Origin: an uncultured Reyranella sp. | GTDB taxonomy: Bacteria > Pseudomonadota > Alphaproteobacteria > Reyranellales > Reyranellaceae | NCBI GenBank assembly: GCA_937915145.1 | Contig: CALDNT010000256.1 | Span: 1 to 54,791 of the forward strand | Direction: 5' to 3' | Length of the DNA stretch: 54,791 nucleotides | Shown: positions 23,287-32,483 of the stretch, piece by piece | Layout of the letters: every line of letters starts with the position of its first letter | Numbering within the stretch: position 1 is the first letter of the stretch | Notes under the pieces: model-generated | Seen by the model: the letters and a program-made list of their open reading frames with translations, nothing else | Database searches by the model: none | What the model was told of the DNA's origin: nothing | Program-made: the position numbers and the translations under genes

Positions 23287-23958
23287 CTACCGATTCAATA
23301 GCGCGTGGGCATCGCGCAATTCCTGAAGCGAAGCCAGCAAGGCCTCGGGATCGGGCCAGCGCGACGGATCGACGTCGGCGAAGGCGAAGGCCACGCGGGC
23401 GCTCGGTTCGACCACGAACACCGCGGGCACCGGCAGGCGCCAGGTCGAATCGCCGTGCTGGGCGGGCAGGTCGCGGCCGCGTTCGCGATGCATGCGGATG
23501 TAGCCGGGCGAGAGGTCGTAGGCCAGTCCACAGGTGCGGGCAAAGGCATTGGCCGGATCGCTGAGCAGCAGGTAGCCGATGCCGTGCCGGGCCGCCGTTC
23601 GGGTCACGTGTTCGCGCTGGTCCGGCATCACGCCCACGGCCGTGGCCCCCAGGGCTTCGATCGCCGGCCGCGCCTCCTTGAGGGCGGCCATGGTGAGGTT
23701 GCAATAGGGACACCAGTCGCCGCGGAAGAGTGCCAGCACCAGCGGGCCCCGGTCGAGCAGCTCGCTCGATGTCCAGGTCCGGCCGGAGCCGTCCTTGAGC
23801 GCGAAATCCGGCAGATAGTCGCCGACTCCGAGCCCCTCCTCGGCGACGCGCATCATCCGCAGCCGATCGAGTTCGTCCTCGAAATCTGCCCGGTCATGTG
23901 GAGAAAGCGCCGCCGTGTGGTGACGGCTCAACTCCAGGAGCGTCTCGGTCAGGGTCAT
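23287..23958 (-). CDS. Peroxiredoxin-like (AhpC/TSA) redoxin
   Basis: 223 residues from ATG 23958. After a helical N-terminal extension, the thioredoxin fold begins Gly-Asp-Tyr-Leu-Pro-Asp-Phe-Ala-Leu (47-55). The active site is Phe-Arg-Gly-Asp-Trp-Cys83-Pro-Tyr-Cys86, a CxxC rather than the usual Thr-x-x-Cys, so it may act as a thiol reductase as well as a peroxidase. Divergent from a LysR gene whose likely binding sites lie in the shared 117-base gap, which suggests induction by peroxide or another reactive signal. Confidence 0.85.
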   Translation of the reverse strand: MTLTETLLELSRHHTAALSPHDRADFEDELDRLRMMRVAEEGLGVGDYLPDFALKDGSGRTWTSSELLDRGPLVLALFRGDWCPYCNLTMAALKEARPAIEALGATAVGVMPDQREHVTRTAARHGIGYLLLSDPANAFARTCGLAYDLSPGYIRMHRERGRDLPAQHGDSTWRLPVPAVFVVEPSARVAFAFADVDPSRWPDPEALLASLQELRDAHALLNR

Positions 23959-24075: not shown

Positions 24076-24963
24076 GTGGAAATGCATCAGATTCGTTACT
24101 TTCTGGCGGTTTGCGAGACGCTGAATTTCACGCGCGCCGCCGAGTCGTGTCACGTCTCACAACCGTCGCTGACGCGCGCCATCAAGGGCCTCGAGGACGA
24201 GCTGGGTGGGCCGTTGTTCCGCCGCGAGCGCAACAACACCCATCTGACCGGCCTGGGCGAGATGATGCGCCCTCACCTGTCGCAGGTCCTGGTCGAGACC
24301 GACGCCGCCAAGGAGCGCGCCAAGAATTTTTCCCGCCTGGAAGATGTCGAGCTGAAGCTCGGCATGATGTGCACCATCGGCCCGCGCCGCTTCGTGCCCT
24401 TCCTGCAGGCCTTCCGCGAACGCCATCCCAAGGTGAGGCTGGTCGTGAAGGACGGATCGAATCAGGAGCTCCAGAACAGCCTCGCGCAGGGCGAGCTCGA
24501 CATTGCGGTCTATGGCCAGCCGGAGGAAATCGACGACCGGTTTCATGCGCGGCGACTTTATGACGAACGCTTCGTCATCGGCGTCGGGCCAGGCCATCCC
24601 TTCGACCAGCAGAACGTCGTGTCCGCCCAGGATCTCGACGGCCAACACTATATCAATCGGCTGCAGTGCGAGTTTTTCGACCACGCCCGCAAACTGTTTC
24701 GCGAAAGAGGCGCCAAGACCGTCATCGTCTTCCGCAGCGACCGCGACGACTGGGTGCAAAGCATGGTGATGGCGGGACTGGGGTTCACCTTCATTCCCGA
24801 ATATGCTGTTACGGTGCCCGGCCTGCGCGTACGCCCTCTGATCGATCCGGAGATCACCCGCACAATCCAGATCGTCACCGTGCGTGGTAGACCGCACGCG
24901 CCTGCCGTGGGCACATTCGTTCGCGAAATTCTGGCCTTTCCCTGGGCAAACGCCGGTTCCTAG
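24076..24963 (+). CDS. LysR-family transcriptional regulator
   Basis: 295 residues from GTG 24076, which gives the usual start Met-Glu-Met-His-Gln-Ile-Arg-Tyr-Phe-Leu-Ala-Val-Cys-Glu-Thr-Leu-Asn-Phe-Thr. The winged helix-turn-helix spans about 1-65 (Ala-Ala-Glu-Ser-Cys-His-Val-Ser-Gln-Pro-Ser-Leu-Thr), then the linker helix and an effector domain. It is close to OxyR-like and other LysR groups; no clear peroxidatic Cys pair was identified. Sixteen bases separate it from the selenoprotein gene downstream, so it is probably in the same transcript; it also faces the peroxiredoxin gene. Confidence 0.88.
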   Translation: MEMHQIRYFLAVCETLNFTRAAESCHVSQPSLTRAIKGLEDELGGPLFRRERNNTHLTGLGEMMRPHLSQVLVETDAAKERAKNFSRLEDVELKLGMMCTIGPRRFVPFLQAFRERHPKVRLVVKDGSNQELQNSLAQGELDIAVYGQPEEIDDRFHARRLYDERFVIGVGPGHPFDQQNVVSAQDLDGQHYINRLQCEFFDHARKLFRERGAKTVIVFRSDRDDWVQSMVMAGLGFTFIPEYAVTVPGLRVRPLIDPEITRTIQIVTVRGRPHAPAVGTFVREILAFPWANAGS

Positions 24964-24979: not shown

Positions 24980-26146
24980 ATGGTCAAGCGTCTGAGCGAC
25001 CTGCCCGAGGTCGAAGCCCATCACCTCGCCAACATCAAATGTCCGACCTACGACGACACGCCGCCGCTTGCCGGCAAGCCGTTGCAGCAGCGCCGCGTCG
25101 TGCTGATCTCGACGGCGGGCCTGCACAAGCGCGGCGACCGGCCGTTCCAGCCGGGCGACGGCAGCTACCGTGTCATTCCGGCCGACACTGCGGCCAGTGA
25201 GCTGGTGATGAGCCACATCTCGGTCAATTTCGACCGCACCGGCTTTCAGCAGGATCTGAACGTGTCCTTCCCGATCGACCGGTTGCGCGAACTGGCGGCC
25301 GATGGCGTCGTGGGGTCGATGGCGGCGATGCACTATTCCTTCATGGGGGCTTTTCCGCCCGAAGCAGCCGAGCCGCACGCCCGGCATCTGGCGGGGCTGC
25401 TGAAGAACGATCAGGTCGACGCCGCCATCCTCGTTCCGGTTTGACCCGCCTGTACGCGCGCCGTGGGCGCGCTGGGCCACTTTCTGGAGCGCGAAGGCAT
25501 TGCCACCGTCGGCATCAGCCTGGTGCGCGAGCACACTGAAACCATCCGTCCGCCCCGCGCGCTGTGGGTGACGTTCGAACTCGGCCGGCCGCTGGGTGTG
25601 CCGGACGACGCGCCTTTCCAGCGCCGCGTGCTGCATGCCGCTGCCCGCCTGCTGGAACGCACCGACGGTCCGGTGATCGCCGACTATCCCGAGCATGTCA
25701 CCGAGGAGACCGATCTCACCGGCTGGGCCTGCCCGATCAATCTGGCCCCCGGACGGACCGATACGCTGGCGGCGGAGATCGACCGGCTGGGCGTCTGGTA
25801 CGACCGGGCCGTCGCGGCCCAGGGCCGGACCACGGTCGGTGTCTCGGGCCTCGACATGCGGGCGGCGGGCGACCTCGTGACCGCGGCGCTCGACGAGGCG
25901 TTGCCGGCGCCGCAGTTGCTCAAGCAGGCGATTGACGATCTGAAGGCCTACTACCTCGAGGCGGCCTCGGCGTTCCCCGACCCCGGCTCGTCGCGAACGC
26001 GCAAGGCGTGGCTGTGGGACGAGACGATCCTGGCGAGATCGCTGCTTGCATTGCAGCCGAAGCTGGCCGCCAGCGCCGATGCCCAGCATCGGATCCTGGG
26101 CAATCTGACCCTGATCCCGGCAACCGAGCGGCACCGCCTCGGCTAG
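24980..26146 (+). CDS. GrdB-like selenoprotein (glycine/sarcosine/betaine/proline reductase B family), Sec155
   Basis: One frame of 388 residues containing TGA at 25442-25444. The N-terminal half ends Ala-Ala-Ile-Leu-Val-Pro-Val; the TGA is followed by Pro-Ala-Cys-Thr-Arg, giving Sec-x-x-Cys at 155-158, the place of the catalytic Sec in GrdB/PrdB (Sec-x-x-Cys-Thr/Thr-Arg). Sequence on both sides reads as one fold, and the C-terminal half has no start signal of its own. Clostridial GrdB cleaves the C-N bond of the bound amino acid. No GrdA, GrdC or GrdD gene is nearby, so the partner and substrate are unknown. Between a LysR gene and a Rieske oxygenase gene. Confidence 0.88.
25442..25472 (+). 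promoter_or_regulatory. Bacterial SECIS hairpin of the GrdB-like gene
   Basis: GCGCGCC (25456-25462) pairs perfectly with GGCGCGC (25466-25472) around the loop GTG. With the T of TGA as 1, loop G and U are at 22 and 23, one base closer than in fdhF. The stem could be displaced by one or two bases because the sequence is GC-rich. Together with the Sec-x-x-Cys context it supports recoding. Confidence 0.72.
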
Positions 26147-26223: not shown

Positions 26224-27558
26224 ATGACGACCGCAACCGAAGGCGCGGAACTCACCCAGGTCGGCCCCGGCACCGCAATGGGCCAGCTCATGCGTGAATA
26301 CTGGATGCCGGCGCTCAAATCCTCCGAACTCGAACGCGACGGCGCGCCGGTCCGCCTGATGCTGCTCGGCGAGAAGCTGATCGCATTTCGCGACAGCACC
26401 GGCCAGGTCGGGGTCATGGATCACCGTTGTCCGCACCGCTGCGCCTCGCTGTTCCTGGGGCGCAACGAGGAAGGCGGCATCCGTTGCCTCTATCACGGCT
26501 GGAAATTCGACACCTCGGGACAGTGCGTCGACATGCCGAGCGTACCGCCGCAACAGGATTTCAAGCACAAGGTGAAGGCCAAGGCCTACCGGACGCTCGA
26601 ACGCGCCGGGCTGGTCTGGGTCTACATGGGGTCGCGCACCGAAGCACCGCCGCTGCCAGCACTGCAGATCCTCGATGCGCCCGACGGCGAGATCAACATC
26701 AGCATGGTCCAGCGCGATTGCAACTACCTGCAGGCGATCGAGGGCGAGATCGACACCGCACATTTCGGCTACCTGCACGGCGGTCATGTCGATCCCGGCA
26801 GGCTGGCGGAGGACGAGCCGCTCTATCACACGGTCGCGATCCGGGCGCCGCAGTATCAGGTGGCCGACGTTCCGTGGGGCACGCAATACGGCGCTCACCG
26901 CTCGGCCGGCGCCGGCCGCACCTATTGGCGTTTCGCCAATTTCCTTTTTCCCTTCTGGACGCAGGCGCCGAACGGCGAATTCGACAGCCATGCCCATGGC
27001 CGCGCCTGGGTGCCGCTCGACGATCATCACACGATGTACGTCTTCATCTGGTGGAAGCGCGCGACCTCGGCGATGTCGCTGCCCCAGCCGACCTATCGCG
27101 ACGGCACGCCGATCGGCGGCACCGGCCGCGGCAACAAGCTGCTGCCCAACACCACCGACTGGCTCGGGCGCTGGCGCATGGCGGACAACGAAGGCAACGA
27201 CTGGGGCATGGATCGCGACGCCCAGCGCCGTAACGCGATCTACAGCGGCATCGACGGCATCCATCTCCAGGACCAGGCAGTCACCGAAAGCATGGGCCCG
27301 ATCGTCGATCACACCTTCGAGCATCTCGGACCATCGGACCAGATGATCACCCGCACGCGACGCCGGCTGCTGATGGCTGCCCGCGCGCTGCGTGACGACG
27401 GTACCCTGCCGCCCGGCGTCGAAGACGGCGGCATCTACCGGGGCGCCCGCAGCGGCTATTTCGTCAGCGACGACCGGGGCGCGTGGCGCGATGTCTACGA
27501 CCGGCGGCTGGCCGCCGCCCTGCACCCGACGTCCACGCCGGCACGCGCCGCCGAATAG
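26224..27558 (+). CDS. Rieske non-haem iron oxygenase, alpha subunit
   Basis: 444 residues from ATG 26224 (CAGGAGG upstream). The Rieske cluster ligands are Cys69-Pro-His71 and Cys88-Leu-Tyr-His91, and the mononuclear iron site lies in Glu-Gly-Glu-Ile-Asp-Thr-Ala-His-Phe-Gly-Tyr-Leu-His near 178-190. The layout resembles phthalate 4,5-dioxygenase and related demethylase-type oxygenases, which act as homotrimers with a separate reductase. No reductase gene lies next to it. 77 bases separate it from the selenoprotein gene, so cotranscription is possible. Confidence 0.88.
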   Translation: MTTATEGAELTQVGPGTAMGQLMREYWMPALKSSELERDGAPVRLMLLGEKLIAFRDSTGQVGVMDHRCPHRCASLFLGRNEEGGIRCLYHGWKFDTSGQCVDMPSVPPQQDFKHKVKAKAYRTLERAGLVWVYMGSRTEAPPLPALQILDAPDGEINISMVQRDCNYLQAIEGEIDTAHFGYLHGGHVDPGRLAEDEPLYHTVAIRAPQYQVADVPWGTQYGAHRSAGAGRTYWRFANFLFPFWTQAPNGEFDSHAHGRAWVPLDDHHTMYVFIWWKRATSAMSLPQPTYRDGTPIGGTGRGNKLLPNTTDWLGRWRMADNEGNDWGMDRDAQRRNAIYSGIDGIHLQDQAVTESMGPIVDHTFEHLGPSDQMITRTRRRLLMAARALRDDGTLPPGVEDGGIYRGARSGYFVSDDRGAWRDVYDRRLAAALHPTSTPARAAE

Positions 27559-30334: not shown

Positions 30335-31759
30335 TCACCAGACCGGCAGACGGGCGAGCAGGCGGACCAGCCAGCGTGTCCGGGGTCCGAACAGGGTTTC
30401 GGTGTAATAGCTGCCGGCGGCGCGTTTGCTGGCCTCGCCCAGGGTCGGATAGGGTGGCACGAAACTCGCCATCGCCGCGATCTTCAGGCGCCGGGAGATC
30501 GCCAGGCACCAGGGCTGGATGAGGTCGCCGGCGTGGGGACCGACGATGGCGGCGCCGAGAATGCGGCCGCGCGAATCGGTTATGACCTTCACCAGCCCGT
30601 CGGTTTCGCGTTCGGCCTGGGCGCGGTCGTTCTCGGCCAGCTTCCAGCGCAGCACCCGGATCGCCTCGCCATGCGTCTTACGTGCCTCGCTTTCGCTAAC
30701 GCCGACCTGCGCCAGCTCGGGGTCGGTGTAGGTCGCCCACGGCACGATCGACGGATCGAGCCGCGCCGGCGCGCGGAACAACGCGCCGCGGATGAACAGC
30801 GAGGCCTCGTAGCCGGCCATGTGCGTGAACGCATAGAGGCCGTTGCAGTCGCCGATCGCCCAGACGTTCCGGTTGGAGGTCCGCAGCGATCCATCGACCG
30901 AGATCCCTCGCCTGGTATGAAGGACGCCCGCCTTCTCGAGATCGAGACCTTCGATGTTCGGCGCCCGGCCGGCGGCGACCAGCAGGTGCGAGCCTTCCAG
31001 GCGCTCGCCGCCGTCCAACAACACCGCGATCCCCGCCGCCGCGCGTTCGACTCCGGAAATCTTCACGCCGCCGCGCAGAGCGACGCCCTCTTCCCGCAGC
31101 CGGTCGACAACGACCGCCGACAGCTCGGGGTCGTCCTTGGCCAGGAAGTCGAACGCCTCCAGCACCGTGACGCGGGCACCGAGACGGCGGTGCGCCTGCG
31201 CCATTTCGAGGCCGATCGGGCCGCCGCCGATCACGATCAGATGGCCCGGCAGCGTACGGTTGGCGAACACCGTCTCGTTGGTGAAATGGGGAACGTCGGC
31301 GAGACCGGGAATGGGCGGCGTGGTCGGCCGTGAGCCGGTCGCCAGAACGATCCGCCGGCTGCTGACGCAGTGTGGCCCGGCCTGCAACGTGGTGCGACCG
31401 ACGAAACGGGCCTCTTCCTTGAGGACGCGCACGCCCAGCTTCTCGAAGCGCTCGACCGAATCGTTGGGTGCGATGGCTGCAATCACGCCGGCGACATGAT
31501 CCATGACTTTGGCGAAATCCACGTTCGGCTCGACCGGCGCGATGCCGAACGCTGCTCCGCTGCGCTGCGCCTGGGCGGCCTTGGCGGCGGCGATCAGTGC
31601 CTTGGACGGCACGCAGCCGAAATTGAGGCAGTCGCCGCCCATCAGGCCGCGCTCGATCAGGATGACGTCGAGGCCGAGTTGAGCGGCGCCGGCGGCGGCC
31701 ACGAGGCCGGCCGAGCCACCGCCCACGATGCAGACGTCGGGTATGAGCTCGGCGCTCAT
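30335..31759 (-). CDS. FAD-dependent disulfide oxidoreductase, mercuric-reductase-like
   Basis: 474 residues from ATG 31759. Pyridine nucleotide-disulfide oxidoreductase class I: FAD loop Val-Gly-Gly-Gly-Ser-Ala-Gly (12-18), redox pair Cys44-Leu-Asn-Phe-Gly-Cys49, NAD(P) loop Ile-Gly-Gly-Gly-Pro-Ile-Gly-Leu-Glu (about 175-183), Asp in Ala-Ile-Gly-Asp-Cys-Asn. The class-I base His-Pro-Thr is replaced by Pro-Pro-Tyr-Pro-Thr-Leu near the end, so it is not lipoamide dehydrogenase. It begins one base after the TVP38 gene stop, and pairs of TVP38 protein and such reductase are known from other bacteria. Substrate unknown. Confidence 0.87.
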   Translation of the reverse strand: MSAELIPDVCIVGGGSAGLVAAAGAAQLGLDVILIERGLMGGDCLNFGCVPSKALIAAAKAAQAQRSGAAFGIAPVEPNVDFAKVMDHVAGVIAAIAPNDSVERFEKLGVRVLKEEARFVGRTTLQAGPHCVSSRRIVLATGSRPTTPPIPGLADVPHFTNETVFANRTLPGHLIVIGGGPIGLEMAQAHRRLGARVTVLEAFDFLAKDDPELSAVVVDRLREEGVALRGGVKISGVERAAAGIAVLLDGGERLEGSHLLVAAGRAPNIEGLDLEKAGVLHTRRGISVDGSLRTSNRNVWAIGDCNGLYAFTHMAGYEASLFIRGALFRAPARLDPSIVPWATYTDPELAQVGVSESEARKTHGEAIRVLRWKLAENDRAQAERETDGLVKVITDSRGRILGAAIVGPHAGDLIQPWCLAISRRLKIAAMASFVPPYPTLGEASKRAAGSYYTETLFGPRTRWLVRLLARLPVW

Positions 31760-31760
31760 G

Positions 31761-32483
31761 TCAGGGCGCCGTCTTGTTGCCGCGCAGGCGGGTGTAGAGG
31801 ACGGGCAACAAAGACAGCGCCGCCAACCCCAGCAGTGGCAGCAGAATGCGCCATTCGAAGATGACGCTGAAATCGGGCCGTTCGCCGCGCTCGATGAGCA
31901 TGCCGAAACTCGCACCGACACTGGCATAGACGACTGCGCCGGGAATGATGCCGATCAGGGTGGCCAGCGAATAGGGACCAAGCTTCATGCCGAGCAGCGC
32001 CGGCACGATGTTGACTAGCCAGAAAGGAAATACCGGCACCAGCCGGAGGACCAAAAGGTAGTTGAAGCTGTCGCGGCGAAAGCCCTCCTCGAGGCGGGCC
32101 AACGTCGCCCCGGCGCGCGCCTGAAAAATGTCGTGGAACGCCGATCGGGCGGCCAGGAACACGGCCACGGAGCCCAGCGTCGCGCCGATCACCGACAGCA
32201 GCGAGCCCAGCCAGACGCCGAACAGGAAGCCACCCACCGGCGTGATCACCACCGCGATTGGCAACGAGAACGCGACCGCGAGCGCATAGGCCAGCACGAA
32301 GATCACCGCCGCCGCGGCGGCGTGGGCGGCAACCCACGACGTGAGTTCGGCATGGTGACGGCTCAGCATCTCGAAGGAGAAGTACCGATCGAGACCGAAC
32401 AGGAGGAAAAGCGCCAGCCCCAGCAGCAGGATCGCCACGGGAAGCAGCCGGCGCAACAATGGCGGGGTCATATGGCTCTTCAT
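31761..32483 (-). CDS. TVP38/TMEM64 (DedA-superfamily) membrane protein
   Basis: 240 residues with five or six hydrophobic segments. Typical SNARE-assoc/DedA motif parts are Val-Ile-Thr-Pro-Val-Gly-Gly-Phe-Leu-Phe-Gly (about 78-88), Leu-Arg-Leu-Val-Pro-Val-Phe-Pro-Phe (near 146-154) with the conserved Arg, and Gly-Ile-Ile-Pro-Gly-Ala-Val. The family is linked to membrane lipid scrambling or transport. It is followed after one base by the disulfide oxidoreductase and starts 53 bases from the GST gene. ATGs at 32483 and 32471 are both possible starts. Confidence 0.88.
   Translation of the reverse strand: MKSHMTPPLLRRLLPVAILLLGLALFLLFGLDRYFSFEMLSRHHAELTSWVAAHAAAAAVIFVLAYALAVAFSLPIAVVITPVGGFLFGVWLGSLLSVIGATLGSVAVFLAARSAFHDIFQARAGATLARLEEGFRRDSFNYLLVLRLVPVFPFWLVNIVPALLGMKLGPYSLATLIGIIPGAVVYASVGASFGMLIERGERPDFSVIFEWRILLPLLGLAALSLLPVLYTRLRGNKTAP

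What the first reader, a model, noticed from the sequence alone, without database searches (positions are those of the whole stretch)
24980..26146. Second selenoprotein: GrdB-like enzyme in an aerobe-like genome
The two halves around TGA 25442 are one frame and one fold, with Sec155-x-x-Cys158. GrdB-type proteins are classic for anaerobic amino acid reduction, yet here there are no GrdA/C/D genes; the neighbours are a LysR regulator and a Rieske oxygenase, an oxygen-using enzyme.
Basis: partly seen in the sequence, partly recalled or inferred. Interest (0 to 1): 0.88.

Follow-up and report, generated by a model that had tools for sequence, protein, structure and literature searches.

The report
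Aerobic PrdB-like selenoprotein with extra domain
The gene is a genuine selenium-containing protein of an oxygen-respiring Reyranella bacterium, built on the core of an anaerobic amino-acid-reductase subunit but lacking that enzyme's essential partners; it carries an extra helical domain and often sits beside peroxide-handling selenoproteins, so it is probably a stand-alone redox enzyme rather than an amino-acid reductase.

Summary
One frame (24980-26146) runs through TGA 25442 and gives 388 residues with Sec155-Pro-Ala-Cys158. The host genome encodes SelA, SelB and tRNA-Sec. The TGA is conserved in about 40 Reyranella genomes and in relatives from several phyla; three rare homologues read straight through. 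A hairpin after the UGA shows compensatory changes, and the next three invariant codons have frozen synonymous sites: a bacterial SECIS.

Residues 33-226 match PrdB best (102 bits) and GrdB less (52), far below both cut-offs. GrdA and the GrdE/PrdA-type subunit (PF09338) are absent from the relatives searched, while the same searches find both in four anaerobes. The Rieske gene is a neighbour only here and in a 98%-identical sister. Recurrent partners are peroxidase-like: a Prx-like UPYC selenoprotein directly upstream in 13 of 37 Reyranella loci, AhpD-like CxxU selenoproteins in Betaproteobacteria and Nitrospinota.

Residues 252-388 form a confidently predicted helical domain without a detected PDB match, found only in this family. 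Most likely a partner-independent selenol/thiol reductase in oxidant or electrophile handling; substrate unknown. Aerobic "PrdB" UxxC selenoproteins are known from sea water since 2005, so this is a new variant of a known kind.

The parts
24980..26146 (+). Gene for the 388-aa PrdB-like selenoprotein (TGA 25442 read as Sec), stop TAG included
   Evidence: orthologues in about 40 genomes; alignment A1
25442..25444 (+). UGA codon, Sec155
   Evidence: conserved
25451..25453 (+). Cys158, presumed resolving Cys of the U-P-x-C motif, invariant in alignment A1
25456..25472 (+). SECIS-like hairpin: stem 25456-25461 with 25467-25472, apical loop 25462-25466, invariant G at 25463, loop starting about 18 nt after the UGA
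   Evidence: frozen synonymous codons T159, R160, A161
25076..25657 (+). PrdB/GrdB-superfamily core (residues 33-226), alternating strands and helices in the AlphaFold model
25733..26143 (+). C-terminal helical domain (residues 252-388), found only in this family in the genomes searched
24082..24963 (+). LysR-type regulator directly upstream, possible local regulator; this arrangement is limited to the window's close relatives
23287..23958 (-). AhpC/TSA-family redoxin with CPYC, divergent, about 1 kb upstream; Cys homologue of the UPYC selenoprotein that lies next to the gene in other Reyranella
26224..27558 (+). Rieske oxygenase, downstream neighbour; not conserved next to this gene, probably not part of the system

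Best explanation
The gene encodes a Sec-dependent, partner-independent oxidoreductase built on the PrdB/GrdB selenoprotein core plus a private C-terminal helical domain. SelB decodes UGA 25442 with the hairpin at 25456-25472 (decoding machinery and RNA constraint shown; decoding itself inferred). The Sec155 selenolate attacks an oxidised or electrophilic small substrate; Cys158 resolves the intermediate as a Se-S bridge; thioredoxin or glutaredoxin re-reduces it (all inferred from the UxxC motif and family chemistry). The helical domain probably forms or closes the substrate site in place of the missing GrdE/PrdA-type subunit (inferred). The physiological role is oxidant or electrophile handling alongside peroxidase-like (seleno)proteins, not fermentative amino-acid reduction (inferred from gene neighbours and partner absence).
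For: Sec machinery. TGA conservation. SECIS: codons T159, R160, A161 use one codon in 90-94% of 70 diverse genes, against at most 69% at any of 36 other conserved sites; hairpin 98.6% paired with changes on both sides in 3 of 5 pairs, exceeding shuffles and slides. PrdB/GrdB homology across the UGA. PF09338 absent from the host's order and GrdA from 11 Reyranellaceae, while both are found in 4 anaerobes; 8 of 12 other carriers of the family also lack PF09338. Prx-like UPYC selenoprotein directly upstream in 13 of 37 Reyranella-type loci, CPYC redoxin in the window clade. AhpD-like CHYU directly upstream in 3 Betaproteobacteria, CNYU nearby in 2 Nitrospinota, CEYC near 2 others. A glutaredoxin gene follows short PrdB-like paralogues of the host. 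COX1 present.
Against: No substrate evidence. Most distant loci (about 35 of 43) have no peroxidase-type gene within 1.5 kb, and contexts vary widely: SDRs, flavin reductases, luciferase-like monooxygenases, acyl-CoA genes. Many carriers are anaerobes (Desulfobacterota, Dehalococcoidia). Neighbourhood does not prove function, and no formal test against random loci was run. No structural relative in the PDB.
Confidence: 0.5

Rival explanations
1. A reductase for an N-substituted or cyclic amino-acid-like compound (betaine, sarcosine, D-proline), using the same Sec chemistry as GrdB/PrdB.
For: Sequence homology to PrdB, GrdH and GrdF models. Conserved UxxC core.
Against: The GrdE/PrdA-type subunit that activates the substrate is absent in all 76 genomes of the order although the search finds it elsewhere. 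GrdA absent. Scores far under curated cut-offs. Where GrdB-like genes occur beside PF09338 they carry UGT rather than UPxC.
Confidence: 0.12
2. A catabolic reductive bond-cleaving enzyme (C-halogen, C-N or C-S) for a xenobiotic or carboxylic acid, with acyl-CoA and oxygenase enzymes acting on the product.
For: An acyl-CoA synthetase-type AMP ligase is upstream in several Reyranellaceae genera; acyl-CoA, SDR and luciferase-like genes recur elsewhere; Rieske gene in the window; an ATC-hydrolase gene is directly upstream of a second paralogue in two genomes.
Against: None of these neighbours is conserved across lineages; the Rieske gene is confined to two near-identical strains.
Confidence: 0.22
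3. Organo-arsenic, organomercury or selenium detoxification, since ArsS-like radical SAM and TVP38/MerA-like flavoprotein genes lie near several copies.
For: ArsS-like radical SAM genes near L157, L162, L170, L186, L194 and VTT/flavoprotein genes near L157, L168, L183, L194; similar VTT and flavoprotein genes about 4-6 kb downstream in the window.
Against: Not adjacent in most loci; such clusters may only reflect shared Sec use. The ArsS assignment was by eye, not by a family search.
Confidence: 0.12
4. Sequencing error, pseudogene, or two separate proteins split by a real stop.
For: TGA is a stop in the standard code; the halves can be listed as two ORFs.
Against: TGA conserved over phyla, frozen synonymous codons and a covarying hairpin, Sec machinery, homologues without any stop there.
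Confidence: 0.01

Closest known systems
D-proline reductase selenoprotein PrdB (TIGR04483)
   Same: Homologous over residues 33-226 with Sec in a U-x-x-C motif (motif in PMC1088965)
   Different: 101.8 bits against a cut-off of 300; about 150 extra C-terminal residues; no PF09338-type partner in the genome
GrdB/GrdF/GrdH of glycine, sarcosine and betaine reductase (PF07355, NF040794/5, TIGR01917/8)
   Same: Shared core around Sec (36-52 bits; PF07355 30.6 bits, above its gathering score)
   Different: Only the last 75 of 347 PF07355 positions align; UPxC instead of UGT; no GrdA or PF09338 partner
Marine 'PrdB' UxxC selenoproteins of the Sargasso Sea and GOS surveys (PMC1088965, PMC2398784)
   Same: UxxC PrdB homologues in oxic surface water; the family studied here includes Puniceispirillum and SAR116 genomes
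   Different: Those reports named them by homology to proline reductase; the passages I read describe no C-terminal domain, partner absence or gene pairing
[quoted passage not shown]
   Same: Neighbouring thiol-redox selenoprotein genes, presumed to act in a common redox process
   Different: The PrdB-like gene described here is not named as a member of such operons in that section

Membership tests
Selenoprotein | In-frame UGA conserved among orthologues at a Cys-equivalent site | tested here: met
Selenoprotein | SelA, SelB and tRNA-Sec in the genome | tested here: met
   (SelD not searched)
Selenoprotein | bSECIS stem-loop just after the UGA, with G among the first two loop bases | tested here: met
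   no Rfam gathering-level hit, so this rests on comparative evidence
Selenoprotein | Selenium shown in the protein | not testable with these tools
   needs 75Se labelling or mass spectrometry
D-proline reductase PrdB (TIGR04483) | Score above the equivalog cut-off of 300 bits | tested here: not met
   101.8 bits
D-proline reductase PrdB (TIGR04483) | Pyruvoyl-type PrdA partner (PF09338 superfamily; that PrdA belongs to it is from general knowledge) | tested here: not met
   0 of 76 genomes of the order; the same search is positive in 4 of 12 control genomes
D-proline reductase PrdB (TIGR04483) | Short protein of about 240 residues | tested here: not met
   388 residues against a model length of 238
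GrdB (glycine/betaine/sarcosine reductase) | Match to NCBIfam GrdB-type models above their cut-offs | tested here: not met
   TIGR01918 42.4 of 65.45 bits, the others further below; the PF07355 gathering score is passed, but only over a C-terminal fragment of the model
GrdB (glycine/betaine/sarcosine reductase) | GrdA and GrdE-type partners in the genome | tested here: not met
   GrdA absent from 11 Reyranellaceae genomes, present in 4 control anaerobes; PF09338 absent
PrdB/GrdB superfamily | Homology across the Sec site | tested here: met
   TIGR04483 E 3.7e-29
Marine GOS 'PrdB' UxxC selenoproteins | Sequence membership in that set | tested here: inconclusive
   GOS sequences not available; marine SAR116 relatives found

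The most novel reading that the evidence does not exclude
A widespread family of stand-alone selenoenzymes, filed so far as proline/glycine reductase subunits, in which an undescribed helical domain replaces the pyruvoyl subunit and which acts with Prx-like or AhpD-like selenoproteins in a previously unrecognised Sec-based oxidant or electrophile defence module of aerobic bacteria.
Probability: 0.3. Interest if true: 0.8.

Novelty: new variant of a known kind. Interest (0 to 1): 0.52.

Why it matters
PrdB-like UxxC selenoproteins are among the most abundant selenoproteins in oxic sea water, yet are still named after an anaerobic proline reductase. The data here show that this longer branch is unlikely to work as the textbook complex in its hosts, give it a distinct domain and recurrent redox partners, and point to cultured hosts (Enhydrobacter aerosaccus, Reyranella soli, R. 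aquatilis) in which the function can be tested.

Tried and rejected
Rfam gathering search found no SECIS family in the window. Profile searches of PDB sequences with the full family and with the C-terminal domain found nothing significant. Foldseek and VIA-align on the full model gave only generic Rossmann-like matches, best Z 7.9; on the C-terminal domain nothing above Z 4.7; this does not prove a new fold. Neighbour clustering over 43 distant loci gave no universally conserved partner. The Rieske link was rejected. The ATC-hydrolase neighbour of the second paralogue was not found near the distant relatives. Literature searches for a functional study of aerobic PrdB-like proteins or of Reyranella selenoproteins found none in the open-access library. 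One Prx-like coordinate set was first given in the wrong frame (62 protein 2) and corrected.

Full report
OBSERVATION. The window reads one frame from ATG 24980 to TAG 26144-26146, interrupted only by TGA 25442-25444. With TGA as Sec it gives 388 residues with the motif VPV-U155-P-A-C158-TRAV. Pfam GRDB (PF07355) matches residues 79-152. NCBIfam TIGR04483 (PrdB) matches residues 33-226 across the UGA at 101.8 bits, more than with the first half alone (82.5 bits); GrdH, GrdF and GrdB models give 36-52 bits.

IS THE UGA READ AS SEC? The host assembly (4.77 Mb, 98% complete) has selB and selA side by side and an adjacent tRNA-Sec on contig C277. Of 76 genomes of the order, 74 have a match to the protein, and every full-length copy listed has exactly one in-frame TGA. 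A genome-collection scan found 260 encoded relatives, of which the best 80 were kept: 37 at 76-98% identity, including named Reyranella and Enhydrobacter, and 43 at 46-55% identity from Alpha-, Beta- and Deltaproteobacteria, Nitrospinota, Dehalococcoidia and Actinomycetota, including marine SAR116 and Puniceispirillum. Over 107 loci, 106 carry one TGA and one has Cys; an alphaproteobacterial sample has three near-full-length homologues with no stop at all, and the one inspected carries Cys. A sequencing error or a pair of separate genes is therefore excluded for practical purposes.

RNA ELEMENT. In 70 diverse genes, among 39 conserved degenerate codons, the three with the most uniform codon choice are the three right after U-P-x-C: R160 CGC 94%, A161 GCC 94%, T159 ACG 90%; the next best is 69%. 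A hairpin at window 25456-25472 is kept in 98.6% of cells in 29 chosen distinct sequences, with changes on both sides in three of five pairs; none of 500 shuffles reaches this pairing, and slid versions fall far below. The apical loop starts about 18 nt after the UGA and has an invariant G at its second base, as bacterial SECIS elements require (rule from general knowledge). Local folding energy is lower than for synonymous recodings on average (mean z -1.0 over 103 sequences), a modest signal on its own.

WHAT IT IS NOT. Glycine, betaine, sarcosine and D-proline reductases need a partner of the PF09338 superfamily whose pyruvoyl group activates the substrate, and the glycine-type enzymes need GrdA (general knowledge; GrdA/GrdB roles in PMC13188914). 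PF09338 is absent in 76 of 76 genomes of the order and GrdA in 11 of 11 Reyranellaceae tested. The same searches succeed in four anaerobes that also carry this family, where GrdB-like genes with UGT rather than UPxC lie beside the PF09338 gene. Eight of the twelve other carriers tested lack PF09338 too (those assemblies may be incomplete). So the family does not appear to depend on that partner. The host has haem-copper oxidases.

ANATOMY. AlphaFold2 gives a good full model (mean pLDDT 82). The core of alternating strands and helices gives only generic Rossmann-like PDB matches (best Z 7.9). Residues 252-388, predicted alone from 55 diverse sequences, form a helical domain at pLDDT 94 without a convincing PDB match. 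In 190 alphaproteobacterial genomes this domain was found only at loci of this family, apart from one marginal hit (one search compared). It is a private addition and the main anatomical difference from PrdB.

NEIGHBOURS. The Rieske gene is next door only in the window and its 98% sister. In 27 of 37 Reyranella-type loci a TetR regulator lies within 1.4 kb upstream, often with a DUF1330 gene, and in 13 of 37 the gene directly upstream (tens of bases, same strand) is an AhpC/TSA-family protein that itself has an in-frame TGA, FFRGSW-UPYC. In the window's subclade a LysR gene and a divergent CPYC redoxin take that place. In three Betaproteobacteria an AhpD-like protein with CHYU ends about 20 nt before the start of the gene. 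In two Nitrospinota an AhpD-like CNYU gene lies about 0.7-0.8 kb downstream, and two other loci have a CEYC AhpD-like gene within 0.8 kb upstream. So different peroxidase-type proteins, several of them selenoproteins, recur beside this gene in separate lineages. About 35 of the 43 distant loci, however, have no such neighbour within 1.5 kb, and no universal partner exists. No formal test against random loci was run.

MECHANISM. Best supported: a UxxC selenol/thiol reductase that works without GrdA or GrdE/PrdA, its substrate site probably completed by the helical domain, recycled by Trx or Grx, and used with peroxidase-type proteins against oxidants or electrophiles. Shown: gene structure, Sec decoding capacity, RNA constraint, homology, partner absence, domain, gene pairing. 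Inferred: chemistry, electron donor, substrate class, role.

NOVELTY. Aerobic PrdB-type UxxC selenoproteins are known from sea water (42 in PMC1088965, 235 in PMC2398784). A 2026 review lists the family as D-proline reductase and mentions Prx-like/AhpD-like selenoprotein operons, but the passages read do not mention this pairing. What appears new is the separation of this long subfamily, its private domain, its partner independence and its pairing. I could search only an open-access library, so prior description elsewhere is possible.

Noticed in passing
L014 (host contig C114) 3545-5605; also L057 6340-8400 and L058 772-2756: Two more PrdB-like selenoprotein genes in tandem in the host genome, one with U-P-L-D (no resolving Cys) and one with U-P-V-C, followed by a glutaredoxin gene; same order in two other genomes.
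   Followed up: partly
L015 (host contig C37) 9420-10346: Fourth PrdB-like selenoprotein of the host (UPVCHQTV), beside a gene that looks like a CaiB-type CoA-transferase and transporter-type genes (by eye).
   Followed up: no
L075 8680-9333; L073 10348-11013 (minus strand): Prx-like (AhpC/TSA) selenoprotein with UPYC directly upstream of the PrdB-like gene; second selenoprotein of a Reyranella operon.
   Followed up: partly
L162 6350-6979, L170, L186; L159 5048-5686, L160: AhpD-like selenoproteins (CHYU, CNYU) beside the PrdB-like gene in Betaproteobacteria and Nitrospinota.
   Followed up: partly
L046 10190-10639 and L047 10264-10713: ATC_hydrolase-family gene (PF14196, tested in L046) directly upstream of a second, 53%-identical paralogue in two Reyranella genomes.
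   Followed up: partly
window 30335-32483: Pyridine-nucleotide-disulphide flavoprotein next to a VTT (TVP38-like) membrane protein; similar pairs lie near distant relatives of the selenoprotein (L157, L168, L183, L194).
   Followed up: partly
L016 (host contig C277) 3077-6374: selA, selB and tRNA-Sec in one cluster; the tRNA gene lies just 3' of selB, not nested in it as reported for other Alphaproteobacteria (PMC8124441).
   Followed up: partly
L200, minus strand, read-through frame at offset 5512: In a Desulfobacula genome the GrdB-like match lies in an 854-residue read-through frame that seems to include the PF09338 gene too, possibly a fused or UGA-joined pair.
   Followed up: no
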